From the NCBI RefSeq assembly GCF_025854335.1, contig NZ_CP107716.1:2411001-2475000 (forward strand): a stretch of DNA of 64,000 nt, given 5' to 3'. Below are positions 33,021-62,275 of this stretch, piece after piece. The notes beneath the pieces were generated by a model, which did no database searches, was not told the origin of the DNA, and saw only the letters and a list, made by a program, of their open reading frames with translations. How positions within the stretch are numbered: the stretch's first letter is position 1; every line of letters begins with the position of its first letter. The stretch comes from Pelagibacterium flavum. GTDB taxonomy: Bacteria > Pseudomonadota > Alphaproteobacteria > Rhizobiales > Devosiaceae. The translations under genes and the position numbers were made by a program.

Positions 33021-33173
33021 GGCGGAGAGAAAGTCCGCCATACCTTTATCCGTCGATGTTCGCAGCCATCCGAAATTCCTTCAAAATTTGAAGTATTTGG
33101 CTATGTAGTTGGTTTTTGCCATTCGCTCATGTACGCTGCAATCCGGTGATTTCTTTAGGGTTGGTTTTAGGGT
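33020..33173 (+). other. Left end of integrative element: att-like core and arm-type repeats
   Basis: TGGCGGAGAG (33020-33029) recurs at the right end at 38865-38874. TTTAGGGT occurs twice here, at 33154-33161 and 33166-33173, four bases apart, and the same pair with a four-base gap recurs at 38789-38808. The core resembles the reverse complement of a tRNA 3' end (CTCTCCGCCA, as in many serine tRNAs), but no tRNA body is present. The layout next to an integrase gene fits an attachment site with integrase arm-binding sites. The assignment is inferred. Confidence 0.5.
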
Positions 33174-33185: not shown

Positions 33186-33611
33186 ATGGCCAAGCAGACA
33201 CACAGGCTGAGCGCACGGTCGGTGACGACCATAACCAAGCCGGGCCTGCATGCCGATGGTGATGGCTTGTACCTTGTAGTAGACAAGACCGGCGCCAAGC
33301 GTTGGGCCTTCATTTTCCAGTGGGACGGCAAGCGCAAAGAGATGGGATTGGGCAACCTGGCGTCCATCGGCCTCGCTGATGCCCGAGGCATCGCCGCAGA
33401 CGCTCGCAGACTGTTGGCAACGGGCAAGAATCCGATCGAAGAGCGAAGGCGCGCCAAAGCCGAGCGCGAAGTCGCTGCCATGACCTTTAGCAGATATGCG
33501 GAGGAATTTGTCGGCGACGTCACCAAGGGTTTTCACAACGACAAGCATCAGGCTCAGTGGCGCATGACTCTTTCCGTGGTCAGGGATATTGATCCCTTCC
33601 ATCGCCTTTAA
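33186..33611 (+). pseudogene. Tyrosine integrase, N-terminal fragment (arm-binding and core-binding domains only)
   Basis: The 141-residue frame starts like a P4/DUF4102-type integrase: LSARSVTTITKPGLHADGDG, WAFIFQWDGKRKEMGLG, LADARGIAADARRLLATGKN. It then enters the core-binding domain (FSRYAEEFVGDVTKGFHND, KHQAQWRMTL) and stops. About 260 residues with the catalytic domain are missing, so it cannot recombine DNA alone. The joint at about 33580 leads into an unrelated integrase tail, which shows a deletion or recombination event. The start ATG follows GGAACGG. Confidence 0.85.
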
Positions 33612-33618
33612 GAACTCC

Positions 33619-34083
33619 ATGTCGTCCTTCTTCGGTAGTAAGCCGTTCAGATTGGTCCTGCCCGATCTGGGCCAGCTCTACCGTTACATCGAGGACTACA
33701 TCGATCGGCACAGAGCACGCCTTCTGAATGGCGCCAGCGATCCCAGTACGTTCTTTGTGAAAACCGTCAAAGTCTCGTCCGCGAACGCGGCCTACAGCCA
33801 AACTACCTTTTATGAAGCCTGGCGCCTGATCATCCAGCGGTATGGCATCTATAACCCATGGACCAACCGGGGCGCGATCAAGGGTCTACTCCCTCACGGT
33901 TCCCACAATGTTCGGGACGTGTTGGCGACACATATTCTGAAACAAACAGGATCGTACGAGCAGGCGAGTTATGCGATCCAAGATACCCCTGAGATGGTAG
34001 CCCAACACTATGGACGCTTCCTGCCGCAGGACAAGGCTGCACTTGCGGCTCGCATTCTCAACAAGGTTTGGGAAGCTGCGTAG
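33619..34083 (+). pseudogene. Tyrosine recombinase, C-terminal fragment of a different integrase
   Basis: The 154-residue frame ends with recombinase active-site features. LLPHGSHNVRDVLATHIL supplies the His-x-x-Arg box, and MVAQHYGRFLPQDKAALAAR has the nucleophile-type tyrosine followed by GRF. The preceding residues (SKPFRLVLPDLGQLYRYIEDY) look like the middle of a long integrase. It differs from the P4-type tail expected after the previous fragment, so two integrases appear to have been joined. The first catalytic arginine region is missing, so it is probably inactive. Confidence 0.7.
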
Positions 34084-38506: not shown

Positions 38507-38530
38507 TTTTGCCCCCATTTCGCAGGCAAC

Positions 38531-38880: not shown

Positions 38881-38974
38881 ACTCTCTGCCGAAATACATT
38901 TTTCCTAGCGATTCCAAATTGTTCAGGCGATACTTCGACTTACAAGTGCAATCGTGGATACAATGCAGGATACA

Positions 38975-40221: not shown

Positions 40222-40223
40222 AG
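39387..40223 (+). CDS. IS5-family transposase
   Basis: The 278-residue DDE transposase has LTDQEWAIIAPLMPPARSIG at the N-terminus. The first aspartate is in GVIDSQSVKTTE, the second in FADGGYAGPK, and the glutamate in WVVERTFAWLGRCRRLAKDW. All catalytic residues are present and the frame is intact, so it may be active. Its TAG stop (40221-40223) crosses the IS end: the last two bases come from the target site. The protein end therefore depends on the insertion site. Confidence 0.93.
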   Translation: MAWTETARHEYARRGRRYSSDLTDQEWAIIAPLMPPARSIGRPRTTNLRSVMDAVLYMASSGCQWSLLPGEFPPPSTVQRYFYDWRDSGLLAIINHHLVMIARECEGREASPSAGVIDSQSVKTTESGGVRGYDAGKKIKGRKRHIVTDTLGLMVGLVVHSADVQDRDGAATVLQSIRSSFPWLRHVFADGGYAGPKLRGSLAKIGRWDLQIVKRSDTAKGFELLPRRWVVERTFAWLGRCRRLAKDWERSVASAQAWIFIAHIRILTRRIARHCNCS

Positions 40224-41858
40224 AGTTTCGAGTCGGGCACTAAGATCGGCCGACGCGCCCGAGTTGGGCCCCTTCCCCAAATGTTCGTCCGCCGCCCGTC
40301 CGGCCAGCAAGGCAATAACGAAGTTCCGGACCTCATTGAGGGTTCTGGTCTTTCCGGTCCGCTGGATGCTTGTCCAGCCGCCAGAGGTGCCTTCGGGCAG
40401 GATACTCACCTCTCCGACCTCGAGACCACAGGTCCACGCGACTATTGCATGACCGGCCTCGTGGATGGCCACAGTTCTTTCATGGTCTGGATCGGTAGCA
40501 TGCTCAAGCAACGGCCCGAACAAGTCATCGACCTGAAGGGGACGGTTCTGGCGGGTGGCAGACGATATCGCCGATAGCGCAAGGGAACGCAGATCAGCGG
40601 CGGTCTTGCCTATCGTCAGCCGTCCCAGAGCGGAATAGGTATCTGATGCCAGTCGCTCACCAAGGTAGTGCCGGAGAATCCTTCCCCGGTCAGCTTCAGA
40701 CGGCAGTCCAACATGAACATGCCGTTCAAGACGACCGGCCCGCACCAGGGCTTTTTCGACGTTGTTGAGATAGTTCGTTCCGGCAAGAAGAAGGATCGGT
40801 CGATCAAGACGCTTGAGCTGATCAATCTTGGTCATCACGCCCGTCACGACCGGTGTCCACCACTGCCTGTTCTCACCCGTCATTGTTCCACGGTCGCCAA
40901 GGGACTCGATCTCATCGATCATTCCCACGACTGGACGATCCGACTGTTCGAGCTTTTGAAAGAACTCGCCGATCTGCTGCATGACGCTGCCAAGATGGCC
41001 ACCGCCGGCTTCGAACCACCACCCGACCGACGTGTAGTGATACGCCCAGCCGGCCGTTTTGGCGATGCTTTCGCAAACGGTCGTCTTTCCAGTTCCGGGT
41101 GGTCCATAGACGATTGAGTATGGCAGGTGGGCGGCAGACGTTTGACCGCTCGCGACCGAGTTCATGAGCTCTACCGCTTCTGTCGCCCACTCCTCCACGC
41201 CTCTGGGAAGTGGCAAATCCTTGAGGAGCGGCGCATCATTGAGTGAGTTACCAGATGGCATATGCCGGGCATTTGCCGCGCGGAGATTGGCGACGCACTG
41301 TTTCGGCGAATGATCGGGGCGGATGGCTGCAGCGATCTCATCAAGGTCGAGGTTTTCGTAGTCGGCAGCGTTGAGGCTCCGCACCGTGTGGCCGGTGACA
41401 ACGCGAATTGCATCGCGCAGCGTTTTGAGTGTCGGCTTGCCAATAGAGTAGCGGTTATTGGCGGCGTAAAGCAGTTTTGGATGGACCATCCCTTCCGGAT
41501 CCTGCGAATAAACAACCAGGCTCGCACCTGGAAAAATCGCTGCGAGCCGGTCGGCACCAGTCGGCTCGTATTTGCCGCTGCGGCGCAAAAGCTCGGTTAT
41601 CGCGTCGCTGTCAGTTCCAACGTTGCGATATTCGACGTTGCGCTCAAACTGGATCGCCCATTCGGCGCTGGGGGTCTTCACGACTGAGATGTTTCCCGGC
41701 TGCTCGAGCGCCTTGCGTTGACGTGCGCTGAAGCTATTTTGAAAATGCAGACGAACCAAAATCTCGACCGTCGTTTGAGGACGACGACGCTGCGGCGGGA
41801 GATTGGACCCAGTCAGGTCATTCAAGTTGTCGGATTTGGAAACCTTGGAAAACGACAT
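40222..41858 (-). pseudogene. FtsH-like AAA+ ATPase / M41 zinc peptidase, interrupted by IS5 element
   Basis: The 5' part codes for 546 residues. An N-terminal unknown domain (about 200 residues) is followed by an AAA+ module with Walker A VYGPPGTGKTTVCE near residue 252, Walker B VVGMIDEIES and the arginine-containing RAGRLERHV. The start of an M41 peptidase follows with the zinc motif HEAGH near residue 465. The frame ends ASADLSARLETL and stops at the IS border. The zinc-ligand aspartate helix of M41 is lost or separated. GAGGAATACC precedes the ATG. Unlike true FtsH it has no membrane segment, so it was probably an island-encoded protein, possibly in defence. Confidence 0.85.
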
Positions 41859-41927
41859 GGTATTCCTCGCACCGGGCAGCGTATTGACGCTGCTCCGGTC
41901 ATTGAGTTGAGAATGAACGATGGACGA

Positions 41928-43196
41928 TTAATGCAGGCGGACGGGCTGCAACTGCTCGGACAAAGGCGTCCAATTCACACGAGAGCGCCCCTTGGCACCG
42001 CACAAAAACTGCGACGCCCCACTGCACGTCGGGAAGACAACATCGCGGGTTAAAACCAGAACGCCATCAACGTCGTCGGCCGGCTCCAGGATACCCGAAT
42101 GCAGCCATTGGGCCCGCAGGAATCCAACAGTGCTGTTGGCCGACGCCACAAAATCGGCACGAACTTCCGATCCTCGCATAACGAGCCATCTGCCATCGGC
42201 GCATTCAGCCGCCGCCGCGGTGAGCCCGCCGAACTCAAGTCCATAGATTTGGCCGTCTGGCCGTTCACGCGCCGGGCGATCAGGTCCAAGGCGCTCATGC
42301 TCGGTAGCAGGACCGGCAAAGACATAGCGCATGTCCTGCCAAAGAAAGGCGACGCCGTTGGCGCGCAAGGTGGCGCAGGCTTCGGATAAGAACAAGGCAA
42401 GCTGGTCATAGCGTCCCGGCTCAACCGCCCCGCCGTGCGGCACGGAATTGATCATGCTTTCAACGTCATAATCGCCATTGAGCCGGTCGAACAGCATACG
42501 CTCGAGAACCTTCGCATCGTCACGCGACAAGCCGTCGCCTTCATCAACGATTGCAACCATCTTTTCGGGGCGGCCCTCGGGGAGCTGACGGCCGGCACCA
42601 ATGCGGCGCGCGACATTGTCGGCGCGGCCGACATAGCACTGGCCACGGTGGTAGAGAACGTAGACCCCGGGGCGCCTGAGTGCCGGTTGACTGGCGAAAT
42701 CGGCGCGCCGCGCGCCTTCGCCGAAGAAGAGGGCCGGCTTGAGCGCGGTAAAGCTCAGGTGCCGGATGGCCGGATTCGCCGGGTCTGGCTCGTTGTCACC
42801 AGAGCCTTGCTTCTCCGCCTTGAGCCGACTCTGCTGAGGCCCAGAGGTGATATCGGCAAAGCCCTCGGTTTTCAGACCCTGCCCTCCCGAAGTCCGCTGA
42901 ACAAGTGAATGAGCGTCCAAGAAGCCAGGCGCAGTAATCTCGATAGCGCCCGCCTGCTCCATTGCCAAAAGGGCCGAGACCGGATCGGGCTCGGCAGCCA
43001 GTAGATCAATAAGGTCCCCGACAGTCGATGAGCCCGTCTCGTCGAGTGCACGAAAGACAGAAACTTGAACCCGGGGCGGAACCTCCGGGCGGCCGATGAG
43101 ACCACGATGATTGGGGAAAGGGTCTGCCTCCAAGTTCTGGATGGCAGAAAGGGGGTTGCGCGCGGACGCAGTGCCCGCGAAAAGAGTATCAGCCAT
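41928..43196 (-). CDS. GIY-YIG nuclease-domain protein with C-terminal DUF4357-like domain
   Basis: The 422-residue protein has an N-terminal winged-helix-like part (VSVFRALDETGSSTVGDLID, ALLAMEQAGAIEIT). A GIY-YIG module follows (RRPGVYVLYHRGQCYVGRAD, NVARRI), about residues 175-245. The C-terminus (WLVMRGSEVRADFVASANS, SRVNWTPLSEQ) resembles DUF4357. The GIY-YIG arginine (ARR) is present, and a later glutamate (KVLERMLFDRLNG) could complete the active site. The combination is frequent near restriction and defence genes. MADTLFAG is taken as the start; a GTG 18 bases upstream is possible. Confidence 0.75.
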   Translation of the reverse strand: MADTLFAGTASARNPLSAIQNLEADPFPNHRGLIGRPEVPPRVQVSVFRALDETGSSTVGDLIDLLAAEPDPVSALLAMEQAGAIEITAPGFLDAHSLVQRTSGGQGLKTEGFADITSGPQQSRLKAEKQGSGDNEPDPANPAIRHLSFTALKPALFFGEGARRADFASQPALRRPGVYVLYHRGQCYVGRADNVARRIGAGRQLPEGRPEKMVAIVDEGDGLSRDDAKVLERMLFDRLNGDYDVESMINSVPHGGAVEPGRYDQLALFLSEACATLRANGVAFLWQDMRYVFAGPATEHERLGPDRPARERPDGQIYGLEFGGLTAAAAECADGRWLVMRGSEVRADFVASANSTVGFLRAQWLHSGILEPADDVDGVLVLTRDVVFPTCSGASQFLCGAKGRSRVNWTPLSEQLQPVRLH

Positions 43197-43711
43197 GTCA
43201 ATCTCGCTGTTCACGCAGTGAGGTCATGGTCAGGTCGGCGGGAGGTTTGCAGACCCCTCGTCGACCGCCTTTGCAGCGGCGGCTTCTGACCAGCAGGCGC
43301 GGAATTGCGCCGGTTCCCACAAGATGGGGCGAAGTTTCCAATTTGCAAACGAAAACCCGGCGCAATGCGCATTAAGCACCAACACGGTTAATTTTTGACC
43401 GCTTCCGGGAAGAAATTTAATTCAAATTCGTATTAAACGATCTAAAAACTTCTTGAGGAAGCCCTTTTATCTAGCGGAATTTCAGCGCGATTGGTCATTC
43501 TTGACATGCCGTGCCAGGCTGGGCCGATGTGCGGTTTAGACCGGCTCGTTTGCGACTGTGCCATCATCGCTCCAGGTTGGGTAAAGGTGCATCTTGTGCT
43601 GAACCGCAATCAAGGAGGGAATTTGCATATCTCGGATTTGAAACGGCGGTAAGGTTGGTGACCTTAACATCGAAACTGGCAATAGGCGCTCTTCCTCACC
43701 GAGGCAATTTG
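43197..43711. other. AT-rich intergenic region between GIY-YIG and NYN genes
   Basis: About 500 bases without a convincing gene. The stretch 43380-43460 is rich in A and T (TTTAATTCAAATTCGTATTA) and probably holds the promoter of the GIY-YIG gene. No repeat or RNA structure stands out. Confidence 0.4.
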
Positions 43712-44470
43712 CTATCTTGTCGTTGACTTAATCTCGCTGGCCCGCACCTGCGCTTTCCGTCGGATGCGGACAGCGCCGCCGGTTGGATGATCGACTTCGA
43801 ATTCGGGAATCTTACGAACCAGATCGCTGAGCTTTCGAAATCCGAAATTGCGGGGATCAAAATCCGATTCTAGGTTGGCCAACTGCTTACCCACAGTCGC
43901 CAGTGCCACCCAGCCGTCGTCGTTATCGATTTCGGCGATAACCTTTCGAATAACAGGACCCGCCTTACTGGTTGGCTGCAACGGCCTGCCGACCAGCACG
44001 TCGTCTTCACTGCTTGAGGATGCGGAGGCGATAAGATTTTCTGTATAGACGAACCGCCGGCACGCTTGGCGAAAGCTTTCTGGGGTCTTGTGTTCCCCAA
44101 AACCGTATACGTCTACACCCTGCTCCCGGATTCTCGCGGCAAGCCGAGTGAAATCACTGTCCGAAGAAACGAGACAGAAGCCGTCGAAACGCCCACTGTG
44201 CAAAAGATCCATGGCGTCGATGACCAGCGCGATGTCAGACGCGTTCTTGCCTGTCGTGTAAGCGAACTGCTGGTGCGGGATGATCGCGTGCTTTGATAAC
44301 ACTTCGGTCCAGGATCGAGATCTTGCGTGCGAGAAATCTCCGTAAATGCGTCGGACGCTGGCCTCACCCAACTTCGCGATCTCGGCAAACAGACCATCCG
44401 AAATTTTGGCCGATGCGTTATCCGCATCAATCAGCACTGCAAGACGCCTTGAACGCTCATCACTCGCCAT
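43712..44470 (-). CDS. NYN-domain ribonuclease-like protein with OST-HTH/LOTUS domain
   Basis: The 252-residue protein has an NYN (PIN-like) domain at residues about 8-150 with the acidic residues in AVLIDADNASAKI, ASDIALVIDAMDLL and CLVSSDSDFTRLA, then GFGEHKTPESFRQAC. The C-terminal part (GPVIRKVIAEIDNDDGWVAL, FGFRKLSDLVRKIPEFEVDH) is an OST-HTH/LOTUS domain that binds RNA. Proteins of this DUF88/LabA-type class are predicted RNases. It is divergent from the helicase operon and may belong with it or be a separate RNA-targeting defence gene. Confidence 0.85.
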   Translation of the reverse strand: MASDERSRRLAVLIDADNASAKISDGLFAEIAKLGEASVRRIYGDFSHARSRSWTEVLSKHAIIPHQQFAYTTGKNASDIALVIDAMDLLHSGRFDGFCLVSSDSDFTRLAARIREQGVDVYGFGEHKTPESFRQACRRFVYTENLIASASSSSEDDVLVGRPLQPTSKAGPVIRKVIAEIDNDDGWVALATVGKQLANLESDFDPRNFGFRKLSDLVRKIPEFEVDHPTGGAVRIRRKAQVRASEIKSTTR

Positions 44471-44840
44471 CAGGAGCCCTCTAATGTTTCGTGCCAGCGC
44501 ACCGATGCTCTACCAAATATCGCACCACAACAATAAAATTTGCAACGCGGTAATATTTGGCAGCAGATATCCACAAGAGTGAATCAAATATCCACAGTTT
44601 AGCAACGCATTTCCAGAATCAAATTCCTTCGAATTTCGAAGCATTCTAAATTTCGGATAAGTGTTGCGCTTTTGCGTATATTTGATTCAGAATGAGGAGG
44701 TAACGGGGGCGTTACGAGGGGAGTTTTTAGCAAACATTGTAGCGTTGTTTTTGCAACGGCGGTGACGCGTAGCAATAAGTTGTCGACACCGTCGCAACGC
44801 GGCTGGGGATAGGTCGCGACGGGTTTAAAGAGGACAATAA
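44471..44840. promoter_or_regulatory. AT-rich divergent control region before the helicase operon
   Basis: ATATCCACA occurs at 44567 and 44588, 21 bases apart (two helical turns), close to the DnaA-box form TTATCCACA. GAATCAAAT occurs at 44581 and about 44616, and inverted near 44682. GTAACG-GGGG-CGTTAC (44700-44715) is a short palindrome that could be an operator. The region separates the NYN gene from the 268-residue protein gene and must hold both promoters. Confidence 0.5.
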
Positions 44841-45647
44841 ATGGGCAAGGCTGAAACGGTTCGCGTCAGCAAACTGGGCAAGAAAGAACTAAGACTTGTT
44901 AACATGAATGGCCGCTTTTTCGGATTGGCGGATGGGGTTCAATGTGCCGAGGGCGACAACGCGGACGATGTCTGGCGGCTGTTGCACGATGATGCGGGAA
45001 AGAGCGATCCGAAGTACTTCGGCTTCGGCGGCGCGCGCAGCCGTTTTCTGACGTTTTTTCCGAACGGCTTTCACTCCGGTGGATATACCTCACAGGAGCG
45101 CGACTACAAGCTCGCGGCGAAAGCGAAGCTCGACCAGACAGCACCTCTTGATCGGGCGATAGAGGGAGACGGTTTCGGCGAAGCGGTGCTCGCGGCATTC
45201 CGGGGCACCAATATGCTTTCACCGTTCGAAAAGACGCGCCTTCAGGACCTGTTGCGCGGCCATCGAGCCGACGACTTCATTCGGGCTGCGGCCCGTTTCA
45301 CGATGGACGGACGTGATTCCGACCTTTTCGCCATGGAGCAGGCTTTACGACCGCACGACAGCGCAAAATGGACGGTCGCGACGTACCTGCCATTTCTCTG
45401 GCGGCCGGACAAGCATATGTTTTTAAAGCCGGAAGTCACGAAGGACTTCGCCAGTCGCGTGGGCCATCGCTTGGCCGCGGACTACGAAGCGCGGCTCCAT
45501 CTTCCCGTCTATAAGAGTCTGCTTGATCTCGTTGACAAGACCGAGCGAGAACTGGCGGACATGCGACCACGCGACCGGATCGACATCCAGAGCTTCATCT
45601 GGGTAGTGGGCGACTACCGCGAAGGACGGGAGGCTGTCTATCAATAG
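44841..45647 (+). CDS. Uncharacterised 268-residue protein, partner of the exonuclease-helicase fusion
   Basis: It is soluble, with no signal or membrane segment. The N-terminal part (ELRLVNMNGRFFGLADGVQC, KYFGFGGARSRFLTFFPNGF) looks like a small beta-rich domain. The C-terminal part (WTVATYLPFLWRPDKHMFLK, PEVTKDFASRVGHRLAADYE, MRPRDRIDIQSFIWVVGDYR) resembles a segment I recall from uncharacterised proteins beside restriction genes. No catalytic motif is clear. It ends 14 bases before the 1700-residue helicase gene, so the two are co-transcribed. Function unknown; a sensor, adaptor or DNA-binding subunit is possible. Confidence 0.7.
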   Translation: MGKAETVRVSKLGKKELRLVNMNGRFFGLADGVQCAEGDNADDVWRLLHDDAGKSDPKYFGFGGARSRFLTFFPNGFHSGGYTSQERDYKLAAKAKLDQTAPLDRAIEGDGFGEAVLAAFRGTNMLSPFEKTRLQDLLRGHRADDFIRAAARFTMDGRDSDLFAMEQALRPHDSAKWTVATYLPFLWRPDKHMFLKPEVTKDFASRVGHRLAADYEARLHLPVYKSLLDLVDKTERELADMRPRDRIDIQSFIWVVGDYREGREAVYQ

Positions 45648-45661
45648 GAGCGGAAAGCCGC

Positions 45662-48600
45662 ATGATTGAACCGTTTCAAGCTTTTCTGCAGCGGTGCATT
45701 TCGGTTGATCTTGAGGTGAACCCGACCAGTGCCAAGGTTTTTGCTTTGGCAGCAGTGCATGCCGACGGCGAACCGGCAGTTGTTGCGCGTCAGCCACCAA
45801 TTGAACCGACGCTCGACCGCCTGGAGCAGGAGCTGGCCGGTCTGGAGCATATTGTCGGCCACAACATCCTGCGCCATGACCTGCCGCATCTTACGGCGCT
45901 GCGACCGCGGCTCGTGAAAATGTGCAAAGCGCCGATCGACACGTTGTGGCTTAATCCGTTGGCGTTTCCACGCAATCCTTACCACCATTTGGTAAAGCAC
46001 TATCATGACGGACGCCTACTGGCGGGCCACGTCAGCGATCCCGAGCGAGACGCTCTGCTGGTGTTCGACGTGCTGCACAACCAATTGAAAGCGCTGCGTC
46101 AGCAAAACATAGAACAACCCGACGCTGTGGCAACATTCCACTACCTGACCACGCGGATGGAGAACCCTGCTGGATTTGACGCAGTGTTTCGCGAGGTCCG
46201 CCAGTTGCCGCAGCCGTCCCATGCGGTGGCGCGCGAAGCGATTTCCCGTCTGCTTAAAGGCCGAGCTTGTATCATCGGTATCGACCGTGTCCACGAACAC
46301 TTCGCAAGTCCGTCAATGGGCTGGCCTACGGCATACGCCCTGTCCTGGATACTCGTGGCGGGCGGAGACTCGGTGATGCCACCTTGGGTCAGGATGCAGT
46401 TTCCTGAGTCGGCGCGGATTGTGAAGCTGTTGCGGGACACTGCCTGTGACCAGCCCGATTGCACATGGTGTCGCGAACAGAATGACCCGATCAAAGCCCT
46501 GATGCGCTGGTTCGGGTTCGAAAATTTCCGGCCGCAACCCGTGGATGATATGGGTCGACCGCTGCAGGAACGGATCGTTGACGAGGCCATGCGCGGTAAA
46601 AGCATTCTTGGCATCCTTCCAACCGGCACCGGCAAATCGGTCTGCTATCAGATTCCGGCGCTATCGAAATTCGATCGCACGGGCGCGCTGACGGTGGTGA
46701 TCTCACCACTCGTCGCGCTCATGGCAGATCAAGTTCAGGGTATGGCGCGGGCCGGCATCTCTTCGGCGGTCACCATCAATGGCATGCTTTCCATGCCTGA
46801 ACGGCAGGACGCCCTCGACAAGGTGCGCTTGGGCGATGCGGCGATGTTGCTGATTTCGCCAGAGCAGTTGCGCAGCAATACCGTTCGCTCTGTGCTAAAG
46901 CAGCGCGAAGTCGGTCTATGGGTGCTGGACGAGGCCCACTGTGTTTCCAAATGGGGTCACGACTTCCGGCCGGACTATCGCTATATCGGTCGCTTCATGA
47001 AGGAAAGCGCGGGCGACGAGGCGCCCGCGCCGGTGCTGTGCCTCACGGCAACCGCCAAACCCGAGGTCGTGCGCGATATCTGTGAGCATTTTCAGGCGCG
47101 GCTTGGCGTAGAACTGCTCTTGCTCGATGGTGGGGCGGTGCGCACCAATCTCAGCTTCGAAGTGCGCCAAACCAATCGCGGCACCAAACTTACCGATATT
47201 CTCGACGTGATCGAAACGAGATTGCCGCCAGAGGGCGCGTCTGGCGCAATCGTCTATTGCGCCACCCGCAGCGCGACTGAGCGGGTCGCAACTTTTCTCA
47301 AGCAACAGGGCCTGTCCGCCGAACGTTTCCATGCCGGTCTGCCGCCCGATGAAAAGCGTAGCGTCCAAGAGCGGTTTCGCACTGGCGAACTGCGTATCAT
47401 CGCGGCGACCAACGCCTTCGGCATGGGCATCGACAAGCCTGACATCCGCCTCGTAGTCCACGGGGACATACCAGGTTCGCTGGAAAACTATCTACAAGAA
47501 GCTGGTCGCGCCGGCCGCGACCGTAATCATGCCAACTGTGTTCTGTTGTTCTCATCCGAGGACGTGGAAAGGCAGTTCTCGCTATCTGCCCGGTCACGGC
47601 TGGCCCGACACGAGATCGGCGCTATCCTCAAAGCGCTGCGCCGGGTGGACGAACGCACAAAAAAGACTGGCACCGTGGTGGCAACATCGGGCGAAATCGT
47701 GAGGGCGGAACTCGATCGCGAGTTCGAGCGAGAAAGCGCCACCGACGACACCCGGGTGAAGACGGCTGTTTCCTGGCTCGAGGAAGCCGTGCTGCTGTCA
47801 CGCGAGGAAAACCGGGTGGAGGTGTTCCCGTCATCCTTGCTGGTTCGCACTCTGGATGAAGCCGAGGCGATCATCGTCAATGCCCCTGGCATATCCGAGG
47901 AGCGGCGCAAACAGCTGCGTAGTATCGTGCGGCACCTCATGAATGCCCCACTCGATCAGGGCATCAGCACCGACGAGTTGACGGGGGCAAGCGGGCTCAA
48001 TGCCTGGGCCGTAAACAAGGCGCTCGCCGACCTCGAGACGCTAAGGATCGCCCGCAATGACGTGGCGGCTACAGTGTTCGTGCACGTGGGCGTGGAAGAC
48101 AGTTCGCGGCACCGGTTTGCGCTGGCCTCACGGCTTGAGGTCGACCTGATCGCGCTGATGCGTGAGGGGGCGCCCGAAGCGGAAATTGACACGGGGTTGC
48201 CGCTCAACCTGCAGGTCGCCTGCCAGACGCTGCGTGACCGGGGCCATGCGAGCGTTCGACCCGATATCGTCGAGCGGTTGGTGCGCGGTATGGCTCGCGA
48301 CGGGCGCGACCAAGAGGGCGGCCGCGGCAATGTGCGGTTGCGGAAGGTCTCGAACAACACGCTTGCCGTGGTCTTGCAGCGAACGTGGCAGGTACTTGAG
48401 CAGACGGCAAACGTCCGCCGCCAGGCCGTGGAGCTGTTGCTGGCACATCTGGTGGGCAAAGTCAGCAAAGGAACGCGCGGCAAGGACATCCAGATAGAAA
48501 CCACGCTTGGTGACCTACTTGCCATTTTGAATGGCGACTCCTTGCTGCGCGCCAACGGCATCCGCGATATGACCAAGCTGATGGAGCGGGCCTTGCTCTG

Positions 48601-50764
48601 GATGCACGAGCAGGAAGTAGCGAGCTTGGGCAAGGGGCTGACAATTTTTCGCCAAGCCATGACCGTTCACCTCAATCCGGCCGGCGGCCAATTTACCCAG
48701 AAAGATTTCATGCCCCTCGAAGAGCATTACGCTGAACAGACGGCACAGACCCACGTGATGGCCGCCTATGCTGAGCGCGGTCTGGGGGCGATGAACGAAG
48801 CGCAACGGCTCTCCGAGGACTATTTCGTCCTCGACCGTGATGCCTTCCTGCGCCGCTGGTTGCCCGGCAAGGGACGGGAATTGCGTCGCCAGACTACAGG
48901 AGCATCCTGGAAAGCGATCGTTGAGGCTCTAGACAACCCGGTCCAGCAGGAGATCGTCGCCGACGACCGCGAGCAGACCAATGTTCTGGTGCTGGCCGGC
49001 CCTGGCTCAGGCAAGACCCGCGTGCTGGTGCACCGAATTGCCTACCTGATCCGCGTCCGGCGCGAAGACCCGCGCGACATTCTCGTCCTCACCTATAACC
49101 GCCACGCCGCCGCAGAAATCCGTGCCCGTCTTCGACACCTCGTTGGCGACGATGCCGGTGCCGTCACGGTGTCGACATGCCATGCGCTGGCGATGAGGCT
49201 GGTTGGAGCGAGCTTTACCGGTTTGCACAACAACGAGCATGATTTTGACGGCGTGTTGATGGAGGCGGTGCGTCAACTTAATGGCGAGGGGCTGAGTAGG
49301 TCCGAAGCTGAGGCGCAACGCGAAACGCTGATCCAGGGTCATCGCTGGATCCTGGTCGATGAGTATCAGGACATTGGGCCGGAGGAATACGCATTGATCT
49401 CAGCGGTGGCCGGTCGCTCGCTGGAGGACCCTGATCTGCGCCTCAGTCTGTTTGCCGTTGGCGATGACGACCAGAACATCTACGGCTTTGCCGGTGCCTC
49501 GATCGACTTCATCCGCCGGTTCGAAGCCGACTACCGCGCCAAGCCCAAATATCTTTTGGAGAACTATCGCTCAAGTGGTCACATCATCGCCGCTGCCAAT
49601 GCTGTGATTGGGCCGGCCGCATCGCGAATGAAGGCAGGCCACGACGTCACCATTGATCGCAAGCGGGCCAAGGAGAGGCAGGGCGGCGAAATGGCAACAC
49701 TCGATCCTGTGGCACAGGGTCGGGTCCAGGTGCTCGATTGTGTCCGAGACGACAGCATCCAGGCAAAAGTGGCGCTGGACGAGCTGGTGCGGCTCTCGCG
49801 CCTTGACCCCGACTGGAGCTGGGCGCGGACGGCGATCATCGCCCGCGACTGGCGGCGGCTTTCCCTGGTGCGGGCGCAGGCCGAGGCGATGGGTATTGAG
49901 GTCGAGATGGCCAACGAAACCTTGCCCAGCATATGGCGCCTGCGCGAAATGGCGCAGTTCATTGCATTAGTGCGCAGCGAACCGACGCATCTCTTGAACA
50001 TTCATGATCTGGTGGAGATGAAGAACACCATCGCCACCAATCGCTGGACCGATCTCATTGCCGAAGGCATTGCGGCACTGGCCCGTGAGCTCAATGCCAA
50101 GACCATGCCGGTGCCTGACCTGGTGGAATGGTTCGCAGAATGGGCCCGCGACGCCCGAACTGAGCAGCGATCACTGCTCTTGCTGACCGCCCATCGTGCC
50201 AAGGGTCTCGAGTTCGATGACGTCGTGATACTTGATGGCGGCTGGGACAGGCCATCAGAGGGAGAGGACGCAGATGCGCCCCGCCGCCTGTTCTACGTCG
50301 CCATGACCCGCGCCCGGCGCAGCCTCGCTATCTTGTCAAACGGCCAGCATCGCTTCTTGCCGCGGGGGAATCTGCACGTGCTGGGTCGACCGGCCCCGCC
50401 CATGGCAGAGGGGACGCGTCCCCCGATCGCCCGCTACCAGATGCCCGACCTCAAGGTCGTCGATCTTTCCTGGGCCGGCAGGCTGGGCGCCGGCAATCAC
50501 GCACTTACCGCCATCGCCCGGGCGAAAGCTGGCGACTGCCTTAACCTTGTCCAGAAGGATGCGGACTGGATGCTGGAAACGCCGGACGGGCACCCCATCG
50601 GCCGCATGGCAAAAAGCTGGTCGCCACCACCCGGCCTCGCCTTTAAGCGGGGTGAAATCGGCGCGATCATCCGCTGGAGGCGATCAGATGGCAGCGAAGA
50701 TTACTGGACTTATATGCGCAGGGACGAATGGGAGGTGGTCGTGCCAGAGCTGGTGTTCGGCTGA
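45662..50764 (+). CDS. DEDD exonuclease - RecQ helicase - UvrD/Rep helicase fusion (1700 aa)
   Basis: Three enzymes are joined in one chain. Residues 1-140 are a DEDD-type 3'-5' exonuclease with D16 and E18 (SVDLEV), GHNILRHD (residues 67-73) and D130 (SDPERD). Residues about 290-650 are a RecQ helicase with Walker A PTGTGKS (320-326), DEAH (423-426), the aromatic loop CVSKWGHDFRPDY and QEAGRAGRD. Residues about 1080-1600 are a superfamily 1 helicase with GPGSGKT (1113-1119), DEYQD (1233-1237), GDDDQNIYGFAGAS and HRAKGLEFDD (from 1511). All motifs are intact. It would unwind and degrade DNA in the cytoplasm. Position in a nuclease-rich island suggests anti-phage or anti-plasmid defence rather than general repair. 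Confidence 0.88.
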   Translation: MIEPFQAFLQRCISVDLEVNPTSAKVFALAAVHADGEPAVVARQPPIEPTLDRLEQELAGLEHIVGHNILRHDLPHLTALRPRLVKMCKAPIDTLWLNPLAFPRNPYHHLVKHYHDGRLLAGHVSDPERDALLVFDVLHNQLKALRQQNIEQPDAVATFHYLTTRMENPAGFDAVFREVRQLPQPSHAVAREAISRLLKGRACIIGIDRVHEHFASPSMGWPTAYALSWILVAGGDSVMPPWVRMQFPESARIVKLLRDTACDQPDCTWCREQNDPIKALMRWFGFENFRPQPVDDMGRPLQERIVDEAMRGKSILGILPTGTGKSVCYQIPALSKFDRTGALTVVISPLVALMADQVQGMARAGISSAVTINGMLSMPERQDALDKVRLGDAAMLLISPEQLRSNTVRSVLKQREVGLWVLDEAHCVSKWGHDFRPDYRYIGRFMKESAGDEAPAPVLCLTATAKPEVVRDICEHFQARLGVELLLLDGGAVRTNLSFEVRQTNRGTKLTDILDVIETRLPPEGASGAIVYCATRSATERVATFLKQQGLSAERFHAGLPPDEKRSVQERFRTGELRIIAATNAFGMGIDKPDIRLVVHGDIPGSLENYLQEAGRAGRDRNHANCVLLFSSEDVERQFSLSARSRLARHEIGAILKALRRVDERTKKTGTVVATSGEIVRAELDREFERESATDDTRVKTAVSWLEEAVLLSREENRVEVFPSSLLVRTLDEAEAIIVNAPGISEERRKQLRSIVRHLMNAPLDQGISTDELTGASGLNAWAVNKALADLETLRIARNDVAATVFVHVGVEDSSRHRFALASRLEVDLIALMREGAPEAEIDTGLPLNLQVACQTLRDRGHASVRPDIVERLVRGMARDGRDQEGGRGNVRLRKVSNNTLAVVLQRTWQVLEQTANVRRQAVELLLAHLVGKVSKGTRGKDIQIETTLGDLLAILNGDSLLRANGIRDMTKLMERALLWMHEQEVASLGKGLTIFRQAMTVHLNPAGGQFTQKDFMPLEEHYAEQTAQTHVMAAYAERGLGAMNEAQRLSEDYFVLDRDAFLRRWLPGKGRELRRQTTGASWKAIVEALDNPVQQEIVADDREQTNVLVLAGPGSGKTRVLVHRIAYLIRVRREDPRDILVLTYNRHAAAEIRARLRHLVGDDAGAVTVSTCHALAMRLVGASFTGLHNNEHDFDGVLMEAVRQLNGEGLSRSEAEAQRETLIQGHRWILVDEYQDIGPEEYALISAVAGRSLEDPDLRLSLFAVGDDDQNIYGFAGASIDFIRRFEADYRAKPKYLLENYRSSGHIIAAANAVIGPAASRMKAGHDVTIDRKRAKERQGGEMATLDPVAQGRVQVLDCVRDDSIQAKVALDELVRLSRLDPDWSWARTAIIARDWRRLSLVRAQAEAMGIEVEMANETLPSIWRLREMAQFIALVRSEPTHLLNIHDLVEMKNTIATNRWTDLIAEGIAALARELNAKTMPVPDLVEWFAEWARDARTEQRSLLLLTAHRAKGLEFDDVVILDGGWDRPSEGEDADAPRRLFYVAMTRARRSLAILSNGQHRFLPRGNLHVLGRPAPPMAEGTRPPIARYQMPDLKVVDLSWAGRLGAGNHALTAIARAKAGDCLNLVQKDADWMLETPDGHPIGRMAKSWSPPPGLAFKRGEIGAIIRWRRSDGSEDYWTYMRRDEWEVVVPELVFG

Positions 50765-51207
50765 CTTGGCACAACGCCATACGAAAACAAGCGACTGTTG
50801 CGTTCTTTGTGCTTTATCGAATCGGAATGAAGAAGCACCGGTAGGTAAAGAGGAGATGTAATCGATACTAAGTGACTACCTCTTGCGGTGTCTAGTTCCC
50901 TCTAATTCTGATCGACTGAAATTTCGCGAGCCAACCGGGAATCCATGTTGGATGATGGTCGGCAGGATACTCTCTTTATCAATTTTTTAGCTAGTAAGGC
51001 CAATGATGGTCGCCGAACCCCTGGAGATCTGAGGTGGGCCACACACAGCCTCCCTGCTTCAAGATGTTGGCACCAACTTGGCCTGAGCGGGATCGTATCT
51101 CCAGTCGGTGATCGTCCCGTCTGTGATGCGTTCGACGGCTTCTTCGATCACGAACAGAGGGACCAAGAACCTGTTCCCCGTCAGCGCCTATGGCACAGAT
51201 TTGAGGT
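50765..51207. other. Intergenic stretch left of the IS3 element
   Basis: After the helicase stop there is lower-GC sequence with no complete gene. The part 51059-51187 holds a broken minus-strand coding fragment. The rest shows nothing recognisable. Confidence 0.4.
51059..51187 (-). pseudogene. Broken coding fragment of an unidentified gene
   Basis: A protein-like minus-strand frame reads GNRFLVPLFVIEEAVERITD, then GTITDWRYDPAQAKLVPTS and stop. It has no start codon and meets a stop upstream, near the IS3 border. This looks like the last 40 codons of a gene cut by the insertion or deletion. Family not recognised. Confidence 0.4.
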
Positions 51208-51256
51208 TGTGATTTAAGGAGGATTTGGGTCTCATCGTAGTGACGAAGGAACGAAG

Positions 51257-51643
51257 ATGAGACCCAAATCCTCCAATGCAAAATCGCGGACCAAGGCCCC
51301 TGCGGAAGCCGTGGTAAAGGACATCCGCCGGGCCACCCGGCGGCATTTTTCGGCGGAAGACAAGATCAGGATCGTCCTGGAAGGCTTGCGCGGCGATGAC
51401 AGCATCGCCGAGTTGTGCCGCAAGGAAGGCATCGCCCAGAGCCTGTATTACACCTGGTCGAAGGAATTCATGGAAGCGGGAAAGCGTCGGCTTTCTGGCG
51501 ATACAGCCCGGGCCGCCACCAGCGACGAGGTCAAGGATCTGCGCCGTGAGGCCGGAGCGCTCAAGGAATGTGTTGCCGATCTGACGCTGGAAAACCGTCT
51601 GCTTAAAAAAAGCATGATCGCGGATGGGGACGACGACGCATGA
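51257..51643 (+). CDS. IS3-family transposase OrfA
   Basis: The 128-residue protein has the helix-turn-helix of IS3 OrfA (FSAEDKIRIVLEGLRGDDSI, AELCRKEGIAQSLYYTWSKE). A leucine-rich coiled region follows (LKECVADLTLENRLLKKSMI). It binds the IS ends. The frame overlaps orfB by four bases (ATGA) rather than by the usual slippery site, so orfB may be translated by reinitiation as well as by frameshift. Confidence 0.9.
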   Translation: MRPKSSNAKSRTKAPAEAVVKDIRRATRRHFSAEDKIRIVLEGLRGDDSIAELCRKEGIAQSLYYTWSKEFMEAGKRRLSGDTARAATSDEVKDLRREAGALKECVADLTLENRLLKKSMIADGDDDA

Positions 51644-52620
51644 GGTATCCATCATCCGAGAAGCTCGAGATCATCAGGCTGGTCGAGCAATCCCATCTGC
51701 CAGCAACACGAACGCTCGATAAACTGGGAATCCCACGCCGGACCTTCTACCGCTGGTATGACCGCTACCTCGAAGGCGGCCCAGAGGCGCTGAAAGATCG
51801 GCCATCGGCACCAAGCCGGGTGTGGAACCGTATCCCGCCTGACATCCGCGACCAGATCATCGAGCTGGCGCTGGAACAGTCCGAGCTGAGCCCGAGAGAA
51901 CTGGCCGTGCGCTTCACCGATGAGAAGCGCTACTTCGTGTCGGAGGCCACGGTTTACCGCCTGCTGAAGGCCCAGGACCTGATCACCAGCCCGGCCTATG
52001 TGGTGATCAAGGCCGCCGATCGCTTCCATACCCAGACCACGCGGCCCAACGAGATGTGGCAGACCGATTTTACCTACTTCAAGATCATCGGCTGGGGTTG
52101 GATGTATCTGTCGACTGTGCTCGACGATTACTCGCGCTACATCATCAGCTGGAAGCTGTGCAGCACGATGCGCGCCGAGGACGTCACCGACACGCTGGAT
52201 CTGGCGCTCGCGGCCTCGGACTGCGATCAGGCCCATGTGTGCCACAAACCCCGGCTGCTCAGCGACAACGGCCCCAGCTACATCGCCGGCGACCTGGCCG
52301 AATATATTGAGGCCCAAGCCATGAGCCATGTGCGCGGCGCTCCAATGCATCCCCAGACCCAGGGCAAGATCGAGCGTTGGCATCAGACGCTGAAGAACCG
52401 CATCCTGCTGGAAAACTACTTCCTGCCGGGCGATCTCGAGGCCCAGATCGAGGCGTTCGTCGAGCACTATAACCACCGGCGCTATCACGAGAGCCTGCGC
52501 AATGTGACCCCCGCCGACGCCTACTTCGGCAGAGCCGCCGCCATCATCGAACAGCGAGAAAGGATCAAACGCAAGACAATCGAACATCGGCGCTTGCAGC
52601 ACCGCAAGCTCGCCGCTTAA
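51640..52620 (+). CDS. IS3-family transposase OrfB (DDE integrase)
   Basis: The 326-residue protein has an HTH region (TRTLDKLGIPRRTFYRWYDR) and an rve integrase core with D in EMWQTDFTYFK, D in LLSDNGPSYIAG and E in QGKIERWHQTLKNR. The DDE triad and the frame are intact, so the element could still move. The protein is typical in length. Confidence 0.92.
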   Translation: MRYPSSEKLEIIRLVEQSHLPATRTLDKLGIPRRTFYRWYDRYLEGGPEALKDRPSAPSRVWNRIPPDIRDQIIELALEQSELSPRELAVRFTDEKRYFVSEATVYRLLKAQDLITSPAYVVIKAADRFHTQTTRPNEMWQTDFTYFKIIGWGWMYLSTVLDDYSRYIISWKLCSTMRAEDVTDTLDLALAASDCDQAHVCHKPRLLSDNGPSYIAGDLAEYIEAQAMSHVRGAPMHPQTQGKIERWHQTLKNRILLENYFLPGDLEAQIEAFVEHYNHRRYHESLRNVTPADAYFGRAAAIIEQRERIKRKTIEHRRLQHRKLAA

Positions 52621-52694
52621 TATTAACCCCCAGATGAGGCCAATGCTCCGCTAATCTACACCGCGAGTTGCGCCAAATGTTCTGACGACGGACA

Positions 52695-53891
52695 ATGCAT
52701 GTGGGTGCTTTAGTCTCAGTGGAGTCGCTGTTCGAGAGTTATCGGCGCTGGATCCTCAACACCCGCCCCTATGGAGGCGACGTGACGAAAGAGCTCGAAT
52801 CGATCTCAGCGACTGCAGCGATCGAGCGGCGTCTCTTCGACCAGACGGCCGGCGACGTAATCGGCAATTTCGGCCGATTCGCGGATGCCTTCGACGTGTC
52901 CACCGCCATGCCGCTCGTGCTCTATCTCGCGACCGAGCCGGAGGTCGGCTCCGACCTCGATCGCGCGCTTTCCGTGCTGGAAAGCTATATTCTTCGACGC
53001 GACATCTGTGGCCTGACCACTAAGAACTACAACCGCCTCTTTGTGGGCATCATCGATCGCCTGCGCTCTGCGGAGGGCAACAAGGTCGACGCCCTCTTGC
53101 AGTACCTCTCGAGCCGCCAATCCGACATAGATCGCTGGCCGGACGACATCGAATGGCAGCGAGCCTGGATCGGTCGAGACCAGTACAAGGGATCCCGACA
53201 AGCGAGGCTGAGATATATTTTCGAGGCCATCGAACTTGCCAAGAGAACCGCTCTCAACGAGGACATCGAGATCAAGTCCGCTTTGACCGTCGAGCACATC
53301 ATGCCGCAAAAGTGGCGGACGAATTGGCCGATTCCCGGGTTCGACCATCTCGACGATGATGATGTCGACCCGGACCATGTTGCGGCGAAGATGGAGCGTG
53401 ACAGCGTGATCGACAATATGGGCAACCTGACCCTGTTGACGCATTCGTTGAATGCAAGCGTGTCCAATGGCCCCTATTCGGTCAAAATGCCCGCAGTCCG
53501 ATCTCATTCAAGCCTCGCGCTCAATCGAGAGCTCAATGCTTATAATGAATGGAACGAGACCAGCATCGCTTCCCGCGGACTGGCACTGTTCGGGACGGCC
53601 AAGGGCATTTGGACGGCCCCATGCCGGCCTCCTGCCCCAGAGGCTCCGGAAAATCAGAGCAACCGTCTGCCGGAAGAAGGCACAATGTGCAGATTCAGCT
53701 ACGCGGGCGCCGAATATACCGGCACGGTGATCAACGAACGCCTTGTTGTGAACGGCATCGACACGCCATTCGCGACCTTCTCAGCCGCCTCAAAGGCGAT
53801 CACACAGACAAGCCGGAATGGTTGGAACGACTGGTATGTTCGGGATGCCGTTGGGGGATGGACGTTGGCCGACGACTGGCGAAAGGGTTAG
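52695..53891 (+). pseudogene. GmrSD-type (DUF262/DUF1524) protein lacking its N-terminal DUF262 domain
   Basis: The 398-residue frame begins in the middle of the family (FESYRRWILNTRPYGGDVTK; DICGLTTKNYNRLF). It contains the DUF1524 HNH nuclease with LTVEHIMPQKWR and DNMGNLTLLTHSLNASVSN, and ends with a RAMA/DUF4357-like domain (FSYAGAEYTGTVI, ASKAITQTSRNGWNDWYVRD). The DUF262 part (roughly 250-300 residues, with the nucleotide-sensing DGQQR motif) is absent, and a TGA lies four codons before the ATG. The IS3 end lies 34 bases upstream. GmrSD enzymes cut modified phage DNA. This copy is probably a truncated relic, unless the nuclease part works alone. Confidence 0.8.
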
Positions 53892-54235
53892 CTGGGGCGA
53901 TATAGCGTCGGCCTTGCGCCCTCATTTCAGCCATTCAGACCGCTTTTCCGATTTCCTGAAAGTTGACGTTCCGCGAACAAGCCATACGACGAGGATCAGC
54001 GCCCGACTTTTCGGTCGCTACGCTACCTTCTGAAGCCAGCCATTCGCTGAGAGCTACCTCGTCGGACACAACATTCGCGTACTTCGCAGACGTCTTGCTT
54101 GGTCCATTGTCAAGGGGCAGGATAGCCGAACGCGCCAGCTGAAAAGTGACCAGGTTCCTGTCCCAAGCCCGGGCCGACAGGAGAAGTTGCGCAAGCTCAG
54201 ATGGCCGTGATCCAATTTCAAAGAAGGAGAGAATA
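53892..54235. other. Intergenic region, right edge of the accessory island
   Basis: There is no convincing gene in these 344 bases. A minus-strand open frame crosses it but overlaps the stress-protein gene and has no family resemblance. The promoter of the stress-protein gene is probably here. Confidence 0.4.
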
Positions 54236-54670
54236 TTGTACAAACACATTTTCATTGCGACGGACGGTTCAGAGATGGCAAGTCGCGGCCTCAACCATGG
54301 CCTGAAACTTGCGGCATCCATTGGTGCTAAAGTCACGATTGTCTCGGTCACCGACATCTGGGCTTCCGGGGCCCTTGCCGAGGCGGATGCGAACGCGATC
54401 GCGAGCTATGAGGAGGCTATGGGTCAAGCCATCAAGGAAATCCTGAGCGAGGCGGGCCGGAGAGCGGAGGCGGAAGGCGTGCAGTACGAAACCCTGCATA
54501 TCCCAAACCGATATGCCGCGGATGCGATCGTTGAAACCGCCCAGAATCTGGGAGCCGATCTCATCGTTATGGCGTCCCACGGGCGCCGCGGCTTTCGCAA
54601 GATGCTTTTGGGCAGCCAAACCAATGAGGTCCTGACCACAAGCACAATCCCGGTTCTCGTCGTGCGGTGA
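54236..54670 (+). CDS. Universal stress protein (UspA family)
   Basis: The 144-residue protein has the Usp fold: HIFIATDGSEMASRGLNHGL at the N-terminus and the ATP-binding motif GADLIVMASHGRRGFRKMLL, GSQTNEVLTTSTIPVLVVR at the C-terminus (G-2x-G-9x-G-S/T type). Such proteins act in stress survival in the cytoplasm. The start is a TTG (54236) behind AAGGAG; no ATG fits. It stands alone, next to the cytochrome gene. Confidence 0.9.
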   Translation: MYKHIFIATDGSEMASRGLNHGLKLAASIGAKVTIVSVTDIWASGALAEADANAIASYEEAMGQAIKEILSEAGRRAEAEGVQYETLHIPNRYAADAIVETAQNLGADLIVMASHGRRGFRKMLLGSQTNEVLTTSTIPVLVVR

Positions 54671-54835
54671 TCGCGCTAGATCCGGTCGGAGCCGGCTTGT
54701 AACCGGACGCGAAATCGCCAATCACGCCTTGGTGATGGCAAGGCCCAGAGCGGCGCTACTGCACCCGCTCTGGGTTGACTGCAAAAATGCCTGCCGGCAG
54801 TGGGCGCATGCGCCAGCAATTCCACGAGCCCGTCC

Positions 54836-55894
54836 CTAGCGGGGCCTTTCTCCTATTTCCACCTGCTTTCCTGATGCTGCAGACAGATCCACGATGCTGT
54901 CATAGAGCAGTTGCAGGGCGTAGTGGGGATTGTGCGCATAGGCGCCTGGGTCGCCGGTGACGAATGCAAAATTGTAGCTGGCGCGCAAAAGGCGCGGCGT
55001 CCAGGCCGTATAAGGTGATCCGGCGCCTTCCTCTCCTTCGGCCAACATGAAATAGGGATAGCGCTCCACATAGGCGATTTGCTCTCCCGAGACCTCGATC
55101 GAATAGTGCTCAATGGCGTCGAGAAGCATGGTTTTCAATCCGTCGATTTCCGTGTGGATGCCGGTGGCGGTGTCGCCGTCGCCATCGAAATCGGGTTCGG
55201 ATGTGCGAATAGCCCTCGGAGACTCGGTGCCGTGACAGCGCGCACAGGTTTCGGTCTGGACTTCGAGCGTGTGCGGATCATGGCAGTCGGTACAGGTGGA
55301 AAACCGGGCGACATGCTGGAACCGGGTCATATAGCTCTTGCCCGGATACTGATAGCCGCCGCCAACCTGACTGCCGAAGAGAGTGGCGGCGGCGACCGCG
55401 TAGTGGGGATTGATAAAGCCCAAGCCGGGATCAACAGTATCGTCCTCGATGCCGCCTGTGGCCGCTGCGACCGCGCCACCAGATTGCCGCCCCTGATGAC
55501 AGCTCAGGCATGTAGCCGAGGAGCCGGGATGATCGATATTCATCCCTGATGGAAATTCCACCCTCTCGATTGCTGCTGCGCCGTCGTTGTGACAGGTGGC
55601 GCAATCAACCACACCTCCTGGGGCAATCAAACCTTCAATGCTTCCAGCGACACTCCCGTCGAACCCGTGGTAGTCCCGGAACCCTTCGCCGGAGTGACAC
55701 ATGGCGCAAGTTCCCGGAATCGCCTGCTCCCCCTCCCAGTGACGGAACGAGGGGGACTGTGCATCGGCGTGTCCTGAGCTGAGCCATTGCTGGACAATAC
55801 TCACAGTCGGTTCGCTTTGCTGAGCCCACGCCGCGTTGGGAAATGCTCCGAGAATGGCAAGCACCGTTCCCGTCCTGAGAATAAGAGCAAACAT
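54836..55894 (-). CDS. Exported five-heme cytochrome c family protein
   Basis: The 352-residue protein has a signal peptide (ILRTGTVLAILGAFPNAAWA, then QQSEP). Five CxxCH heme sites follow in order: CAMCH, CATCH, CLSCH, CTDCH and CARCH, with extra histidines for axial ligands (HGFDG, NPHYA, HDPHT). It should carry electrons in the periplasm. AAAGGG precedes the ATG by six bases. It is divergent from the nqr operon with 117 bases between starts, so the two may share control and an electron path. The partner and reaction are unknown. Confidence 0.85.
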   Translation of the reverse strand: MFALILRTGTVLAILGAFPNAAWAQQSEPTVSIVQQWLSSGHADAQSPSFRHWEGEQAIPGTCAMCHSGEGFRDYHGFDGSVAGSIEGLIAPGGVVDCATCHNDGAAAIERVEFPSGMNIDHPGSSATCLSCHQGRQSGGAVAAATGGIEDDTVDPGLGFINPHYAVAAATLFGSQVGGGYQYPGKSYMTRFQHVARFSTCTDCHDPHTLEVQTETCARCHGTESPRAIRTSEPDFDGDGDTATGIHTEIDGLKTMLLDAIEHYSIEVSGEQIAYVERYPYFMLAEGEEGAGSPYTAWTPRLLRASYNFAFVTGDPGAYAHNPHYALQLLYDSIVDLSAASGKQVEIGERPR

Positions 55895-56011
55895 TGCTAT
55901 CCCTTTCGGTTTGCGCCAAACATGCCCAAATGCTAGGCCTTTGGGATTGATCGAGGTCAAGGTCGCCTGTCCCTGAACGTGCATGGTGGCGTTTGCAACC
56001 GGTGAGGTCAA

Positions 56012-58840: not shown

Positions 58841-58843
58841 GCG

Positions 58844-62266: not shown

Positions 62267-62275
62267 GGAGGCTTC

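What the first reader, a model, noticed from the sequence alone, without database searches (positions are those of the whole stretch)
45662..50764. Three-enzyme fusion: DEDD exonuclease, RecQ helicase and UvrD helicase in one 1700-residue chain
The sequence directly shows complete motif sets for a 3'-5' exonuclease (D16, E18, D73, D130), a RecQ helicase (PTGTGKS, DEAH, QEAGRAGRD) and an SF1 helicase (GPGSGKT, DEYQD, HRAKGLEFDD). RecQ with exonuclease is known (for example WRN), and UvrD-like proteins act in several defence systems. All three in one protein, in a two-gene operon within a nuclease-rich island, is not a standard repair arrangement I can name. It may be an uncharacterised anti-phage or anti-plasmid system.
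Basis: partly seen in the sequence, partly recalled or inferred. Interest (0 to 1): 0.82.

Follow-up and report, generated by a model that had tools for sequence, protein, structure and literature searches.

The report
Exonuclease-RecQ-UvrD fusion, probable phage-defence enzyme
A single very large bacterial protein joins a DNA-chewing enzyme to two different DNA-unwinding motors; it belongs to a widespread but unnamed family whose patchy spread and neighbours suggest that it protects bacteria against invading DNA such as phages, though no test of this was found.

Summary
One 1700-residue ORF (45662-50764, +) carries a DEDD exonuclease domain (relative of DinG's), a RecQ SF2 core and a UvrD-type SF1 helicase. 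It is a real family: in 240 listed homologues (the window's own included) both helicase motif sets are kept, and DEDD is intact in 222; 16 lack the N-terminus in the record and 2 have E18G. Named members span Proteobacteria, Cyanobacteria, Campylobacterota, Bacteroidota and others.

The two-gene operon is not conserved: of 60 homologous loci (56 with at least 1 kb upstream) none has the 268-residue gene beside it.

The defence reading rests on context alone. The gene is patchy (only 1 of 13 genomes of the genus, the window's own). In the same-species genome the island's left junction borders a Gabija system instead. Homologues occur on plasmids, beside a prophage, and near DISARM, Lamassu, type I R-M or CRISPR genes. 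120 neighbours from 14 loci match 214 PADLOC models; 134 proteins from stretches of the same genomes match 14. No catalogue model listed covers the protein; eight literature searches found no description. Best reading: a helicase-exonuclease that attacks 3' ends of invading or replicating foreign DNA. Untested.

The parts
45662..50764 (+). gene of the 1700-aa exonuclease-RecQ-UvrD fusion
45662..46468 (+). N-terminal DEDD (DnaQ-like) exonuclease region, about residues 1-269; D16, E18, D73, D130; S125 at the ExoIII position
   Evidence: (secondary structure)
46469..47617 (+). RecQ SF2 helicase core, residues 270-652 (PTGTGKS 320-326, DEAH 423-426, QEAGRAGRD 612-620)
47618..48907 (+). middle region, residues 653-1082, mixed helical with short strands, no family assigned
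   Evidence: conserved in the family
48908..50389 (+). UvrD-type SF1 helicase, residues 1083-1576 (GPGSGKT 1113-1119, DEYQD 1233-1237, GDDDQ 1267-1271, NYRS 1301-1304, HRAKGLEF 1511-1518)
50390..50761 (+). C-terminal beta-rich tail, residues 1577-1700, no family assigned
44841..45647 (+). upstream 268-aa gene, conserved hypothetical; 14-base gap to the fusion with an AGGAG between them; not a conserved partner
33025..33025 (.). left junction of the island: the same-species genome is 99% identical up to here and then carries another insert
33186..34083 (+). two integrase-like fragments just inside the junction (read by eye)

Best explanation
A one-gene accessory defence effector against invading DNA. 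Shown: a DEDD 3'-5' exonuclease domain, a RecQ core and a UvrD core in one chain with conserved catalytic residues. Inferred from family knowledge: both motors translocate 3' to 5' on single-stranded DNA. Inferred mechanism: the protein loads at 3' tails, gaps or forks of linear, recombining or replicating foreign DNA; RecQ opens the duplex, the exonuclease removes the exposed 3' strand, and UvrD strips bound proteins or drives along the partner strand, so that the foreign genome cannot circularise, prime or recombine. How self DNA is spared is unknown; protection of the chromosome by RecBCD/AddAB, as proposed for Gabija, is one possibility.
For: Domain and residue evidence. Own genome has separate RecQ-like and UvrD-like genes, so it is not the housekeeping enzyme. 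Patchy: 1 of 13 in the genus, 5 of 136 in the family, 15 of 398 sampled in the phylum, 5 of 61 in family f39. Same island junction in the same-species genome borders GajA (2.4e-267) and GajB (1.2e-237). Neighbours: 214 PADLOC models matched by 120 proteins of 14 loci v 14 by 134 proteins of control stretches of the same genomes; 219 by 146 v 41 by 125 against ordinary RecQ loci. Scytonema homologue is co-directional behind drmMI-drmA-drmB-drmC; Thiothrix near CRISPR I-D, Allochromatium near type I R-M. A homologue lies between prophage-like and host genes in L130 (read by eye). Plasmid homologues: 21 records cover 80% or more.
Against: No functional data. 10 of 13 annotated plasmid loci have no R-M, CRISPR or DISARM gene within 10 kb (5 of those 10 have toxin-antitoxin-type genes). 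PADLOC models are not independent, and ordinary RecQ neighbours account for some matches (DpdF, PsyrT). G+C of the gene (61.1%) is close to the left flank (62.8%). Generic repair motors can spread on mobile elements without a defence role.
Confidence: 0.55

Rival explanations
1. Accessory DNA-repair or replication-restart enzyme carried by mobile elements: it processes stalled forks, R-loops or gaps (like DinG, RecQ and UvrD separately) and happens to travel with islands.
For: Closest solved exonuclease relative is DinG, which by its abstract degrades 3' ends and R-loops and acts at forks (PMC12525004). RecQ and UvrD families are repair helicases. In f39, three loci pair the fusion with an XPB-type helicase. 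Some loci show no defence gene.
Against: Absent from most relatives; own genome already has RecQ and UvrD; strong defence-gene surplus around it.
Confidence: 0.27
2. Element-serving factor of plasmids, integrative elements or prophages: it helps their own replication, conversion of entering single strands, or fights rival elements.
For: Plasmid records; next to parAB and replication genes in Aliarcobacter plasmid pACIB; next to prophage-like genes in L130.
Against: Many loci are chromosomal contigs; neighbours differ from locus to locus; in f39 it sits between an ileS-like and a 480-nt gene in L168, L169 and L173 without element genes called there.
Confidence: 0.15

Closest known systems
WRN (Werner syndrome protein)
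   Same: DEDD exonuclease ahead of a RecQ core in one chain (WRN layout recalled; RecQ core matches WRN chains)
   Different: WRN has no UvrD helicase; here the ExoIII residue is Asn/Ser and no RQC or HRDC Pfam match was found
DinG of Firmicutes (DEDD exonuclease plus XPD-like helicase)
   Same: closest solved exonuclease relative by sequence (8zef, E=1.3e-6); exonuclease-helicase fusion
   Different: DinG's motor is XPD-like and single; here RecQ plus UvrD
Gabija (GajA OLD nuclease + GajB UvrD-like helicase)
   Same: nuclease joined functionally to a UvrD-like helicase; a Gabija system occupies the same junction in the same-species genome
   Different: two genes, OLD/TOPRIM nuclease; here one chain, DEDD exonuclease and an extra RecQ motor
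PsyrT/RqlH and DpdF (RecQ-like defence helicases in PADLOC)
   Same: best PADLOC matches of the RecQ part (DpdF 2.5e-113, PsyrT 1.6e-89)
   Different: matches cover only residues of about 272-698; no other Dpd gene matched in the 8 ORFs scanned; score 200.8 against DpdF cut-off 550
Druantia III DruE
   Same: helicase-nuclease effector said to engage 3'-tailed, ssDNA-containing replication intermediates (abstract and headings, PMC13192584)
   Different: YprA-family helicase, works with DruH; not related by any test here

Membership tests
RecQ family helicase | complete RecQ SF2 core and score above the subfamily cut-off | tested here: met
RecQ family helicase (bacterial RecQ equivalog) | TIGR01389 cut-off | tested here: not met
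   348.2 bits against 640.2
UvrD/PcrA helicase | SF1A core motifs and fold | tested here: met
DEDD (DnaQ-like) exonuclease | four acidic residues and homology to a known member | tested here: met
   hhalign against two single generic exonucleases was not significant
DEDDh or DEDDy subclass | His five before, or Tyr four before, the last Asp (recalled) | tested here: not met
   position -5 is Asn 235, Ser 3 of 238; position -4 is Asp 30, Asn 17, Glu 1 of 48
WRN-type RecQ | RQC and HRDC domains after the core | tested here: inconclusive
   no Pfam match at E<=0.01; middle region not searched as a fold on its own
Gabija | GajA OLD nuclease beside GajB | tested here: not met
   none among 8 neighbouring ORFs scanned, 35289-53891
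PsyrTA | C-terminal phosphoribosyltransferase on the RecQ-like protein (recalled) | tested here: not met
   no such Pfam match in the 1700-aa protein
Dpd (DpdF) | DpdF equivalog cut-off | tested here: not met
   NF041063 200.8 bits against 550
anti-phage defence system | protection against phage in a plating or DNA-replication assay | not testable with these tools
   no experiment possible

The most novel reading that the evidence does not exclude
A large, unnamed family of single-polypeptide defence machines that couple two same-polarity motors of different superfamilies (RecQ, UvrD) to a DEDD exonuclease of a new subclass (Asn or Ser in place of the catalytic His/Tyr), working as a self-contained 3'-end-directed degrader of invading DNA, with modular add-ons: a NERD domain in some 1900-residue homologues and an XPB-helicase operon in one proteobacterial family.
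Probability: 0.35. Interest if true: 0.78.

Novelty: new variant of a known kind. Interest (0 to 1): 0.6.

Why it matters
If it defends, it is one of the larger uncatalogued defence-enzyme families: it is annotated only as 'RecQ family ATP-dependent DNA helicase', reaches many phyla, and combines activities that in known systems (Gabija, Druantia, RecBCD-like machines) are split over several proteins. It offers a single-gene test of how nuclease-helicase systems tell invading DNA from self, and an exonuclease site without the usual His or Tyr is a clear biochemical question. If it proves to be a repair enzyme, it shows that repair motors travel as island cargo.

Tried and rejected
Two-gene operon: rejected. 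The 268-aa gene has many homologues (1444 of 2893 candidates), but tblastn with it and six homologues on 60 fusion loci (56 with at least 1 kb upstream; some near-duplicates) found none beside the fusion; L002 has one partial match (27-57% over 30-110 residues) about 6.5 kb away. It matched no Pfam, PADLOC or NCBIfam model and no solved structure.

HIRAN or another 3'-end-binding domain at the C-terminus: considered from memory, not borne out.

Exonuclease by hhalign to two single plasmid-borne exonucleases: not significant (probability 0.3 and 5.7; control 0.2). The DinG match carries the claim. No exonuclease chain was among the 50 rows, which the RecQ core fills; the exonuclease was not folded or fold-searched alone.

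'Core in f39': rejected. In one search my query overlapped the RecQ core, so the tool's tally of 61 of 61 counts ordinary RecQ; by E-value (2e-170 or lower) and open frame (1686-1748 aa) 5 of 61 carry the fusion.

Bacteroides core test: not run, the tool took no such centre.

Right end of the island: not found within 40 kb beyond the window; the sister assembly is in about 90 contigs and 92% complete, so this is weak.

Full report

Conservation: in 240 homologues listed by the two searches (P0001-P0120, P0241-P0360; P0001 is the window's own), D16 is kept in 224 of 224, E18 in 222 of 224, D73 and D130 in 238 of 238 with a residue; 16 rows are gapped at D16/E18, 2 of them at all four. RecQ K325, D423, E424, H426, R616, R619 and UvrD G1117, K1118, D1233, E1234, Q1236, D1237, R1303 are 240 of 240. 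Selection has therefore kept all three sites. The residue five before D130 is Asn in 235 of 238; this protein has Ser. H67, N68, D93, H108 and K112 are 48 of 48 in the smaller set.

The family is broad. Of 8000 candidates scored, 5003 passed for the window protein and 7995 for a divergent profile; shorter helicases may be among them, but the 120 listed in each are about 1340-1908 residues with both helicase parts. Named sources include Rhizobium, Mesorhizobium, Paracoccus, Cereibacter, Azoarcus, Aromatoleum, Thiocapsa, Allochromatium, Nostoc, Scytonema, Arcobacter and Kiritimatiellae; plasmid records add Thiothrix, Bacteroides and Phocaeicola. P0248, P0250 and P0251 (1894-1908 aa) carry an extra NERD domain in an N-terminal extension, with DEDD intact.

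It is accessory. With a family-specific probe (residues 641-1085): 1 of 13 genomes of the genus, the window's own; 5 of 136 in the family; 15 of 398 in an even sample of the phylum. In family f39, 5 of 61. The own genome has a separate RecQ-like (619-aa frame) and UvrD-like genes. The same-species genome G001 (92% complete) is 99% identical to the window up to 33025 and then carries another insert whose first genes match GajA (2.4e-267) and GajB (1.2e-237). That insert resembles a second place in the own genome at 72% (G000:1306412-1310008). Integrase-like fragments lie just inside the junction (33186-34083, by eye).

Neighbourhood. In a first comparison, 146 neighbours of fusion loci matched 219 PADLOC models (type IV and type I restriction enzymes, retron-type reverse transcriptases and others), against 41 for 125 neighbours of 34 ordinary RecQ loci; the taxa differ. 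In a second, the 14 loci other than the window's own from the even phylum sample gave 120 neighbours matching 214 models, some full length (LmuB 0, LmuA 3.2e-253, DrmD 8e-295, type IIG 2.3e-181), against 14 models for 134 proteins from stretches of the same 14 genomes (13 yielded genes) chosen by contig number. Caveats: models overlap, genes were called by my own script, control stretches are shorter, two of the 14 loci seem to be contigs already in the first set, and ordinary RecQ neighbours explain DpdF and PsyrT matches. Pfam tallies agree in kind.

Single loci. Fifteen plasmid regions were viewed, 13 annotated: 3 have CRISPR, type I R-M or DISARM genes within 10 kb (L092, L093, L094), 5 have toxin-antitoxin-type genes (L089, L090, L097, L126, L127), 5 neither (L091, L095, L124, L125, L128). 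In Scytonema the fusion follows drmMI, drmA, drmB and drmC on the same strand with two genes between. In viral contig L130 it lies between phage-like terminase and methylase genes and host-like transporter genes (by eye). No neighbour family recurs widely: the most common cluster was in 6 of about 43 loci and looks like a transporter. In f39, L168, L169 and L173 hold the fusion between an IleS-like gene and a 480-nt gene; L169, L171 and L172 add an XPB helicase (best solved match XPB, 1.6e-76, tested for L169) and 750-770-aa paralogues without a solved relative (tested for L169).

Against known systems: PADLOC's best matches (DpdF, PsyrT, GajB) each cover one helicase part (best 25 of 80); NCBIfam gives only the RecQ subfamily above cut-off among the rows shown (best 25 of 52). 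Literature: searches of the held open-access library found no paper on the fusion. I saw passages of PMC5512222 (UvrD in polyvalent proteins; RecQ only in references) and PMC9122126 (RecQ only in references), and abstracts with outlines of PMC13192584, PMC12525004 and PMC12407980; the rest only as listings. Subscription papers and newer catalogues are not covered.

Mechanism. RecQ and UvrD families move 3' to 5' and DinG's exonuclease digests 3' ends (abstract; helicase polarity recalled). A chain with all three suits 3' tails, gaps and forks: open, digest, clear. Gabija is proposed to act on linear DNA devoid of RecBCD (abstract) and Druantia III's DruE on ssDNA-containing intermediates (abstract); the present protein could work likewise as one gene. 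This is inference: polarity, nuclease activity and protection are untested, and the Asn/Ser ExoIII residue leaves open a slow or altered exonuclease.

Verdict: the architecture is real and old, the operon is not general, the defence role is likely but unproven (0.55).

Noticed in passing
L149 (G001:C35:1-9000), 2968-6644: The same-species genome carries a Gabija pair (GajA, GajB) directly at the island junction where the window has its own island: a swap site for defence cargo. The own genome has a 72% similar stretch elsewhere.
   Followed up: yes
window 54202-62851: An 8.6-kb stretch (with a multi-CXXCH cytochrome-like gene) is duplicated at 98% identity at G000:1422359-1430996.
   Followed up: no
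window 38975-41858: An AAA plus M41-peptidase (FtsH-like) gene is cut by an IS-type transposase gene (39387-40223) of which four more near-identical copies lie in the genome. Described only.
   Followed up: no
window 51170-53891: An IS3-type element (three more copies) abuts a 398-aa ORF that matches only the C-terminal domain of GmrSD-type restriction enzymes, probably a truncated gene.
   Followed up: no
window 43712-44470 and 41928-43214: NYN plus OST-HTH/LOTUS protein, and a GIY-YIG-like protein matching the PADLOC candidate PDC-S14.
   Followed up: no
L169 7465-11387, L171 6289-14998, L172 2294-6234: In one proteobacterial family the fusion follows an XPB-type helicase and one to three diverged paralogues of about 760 aa: a possible multi-helicase system.
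   Followed up: partly
P0248, P0250, P0251: Homologues of about 1900 aa with an extra NERD domain ahead of the exonuclease.
   Followed up: partly
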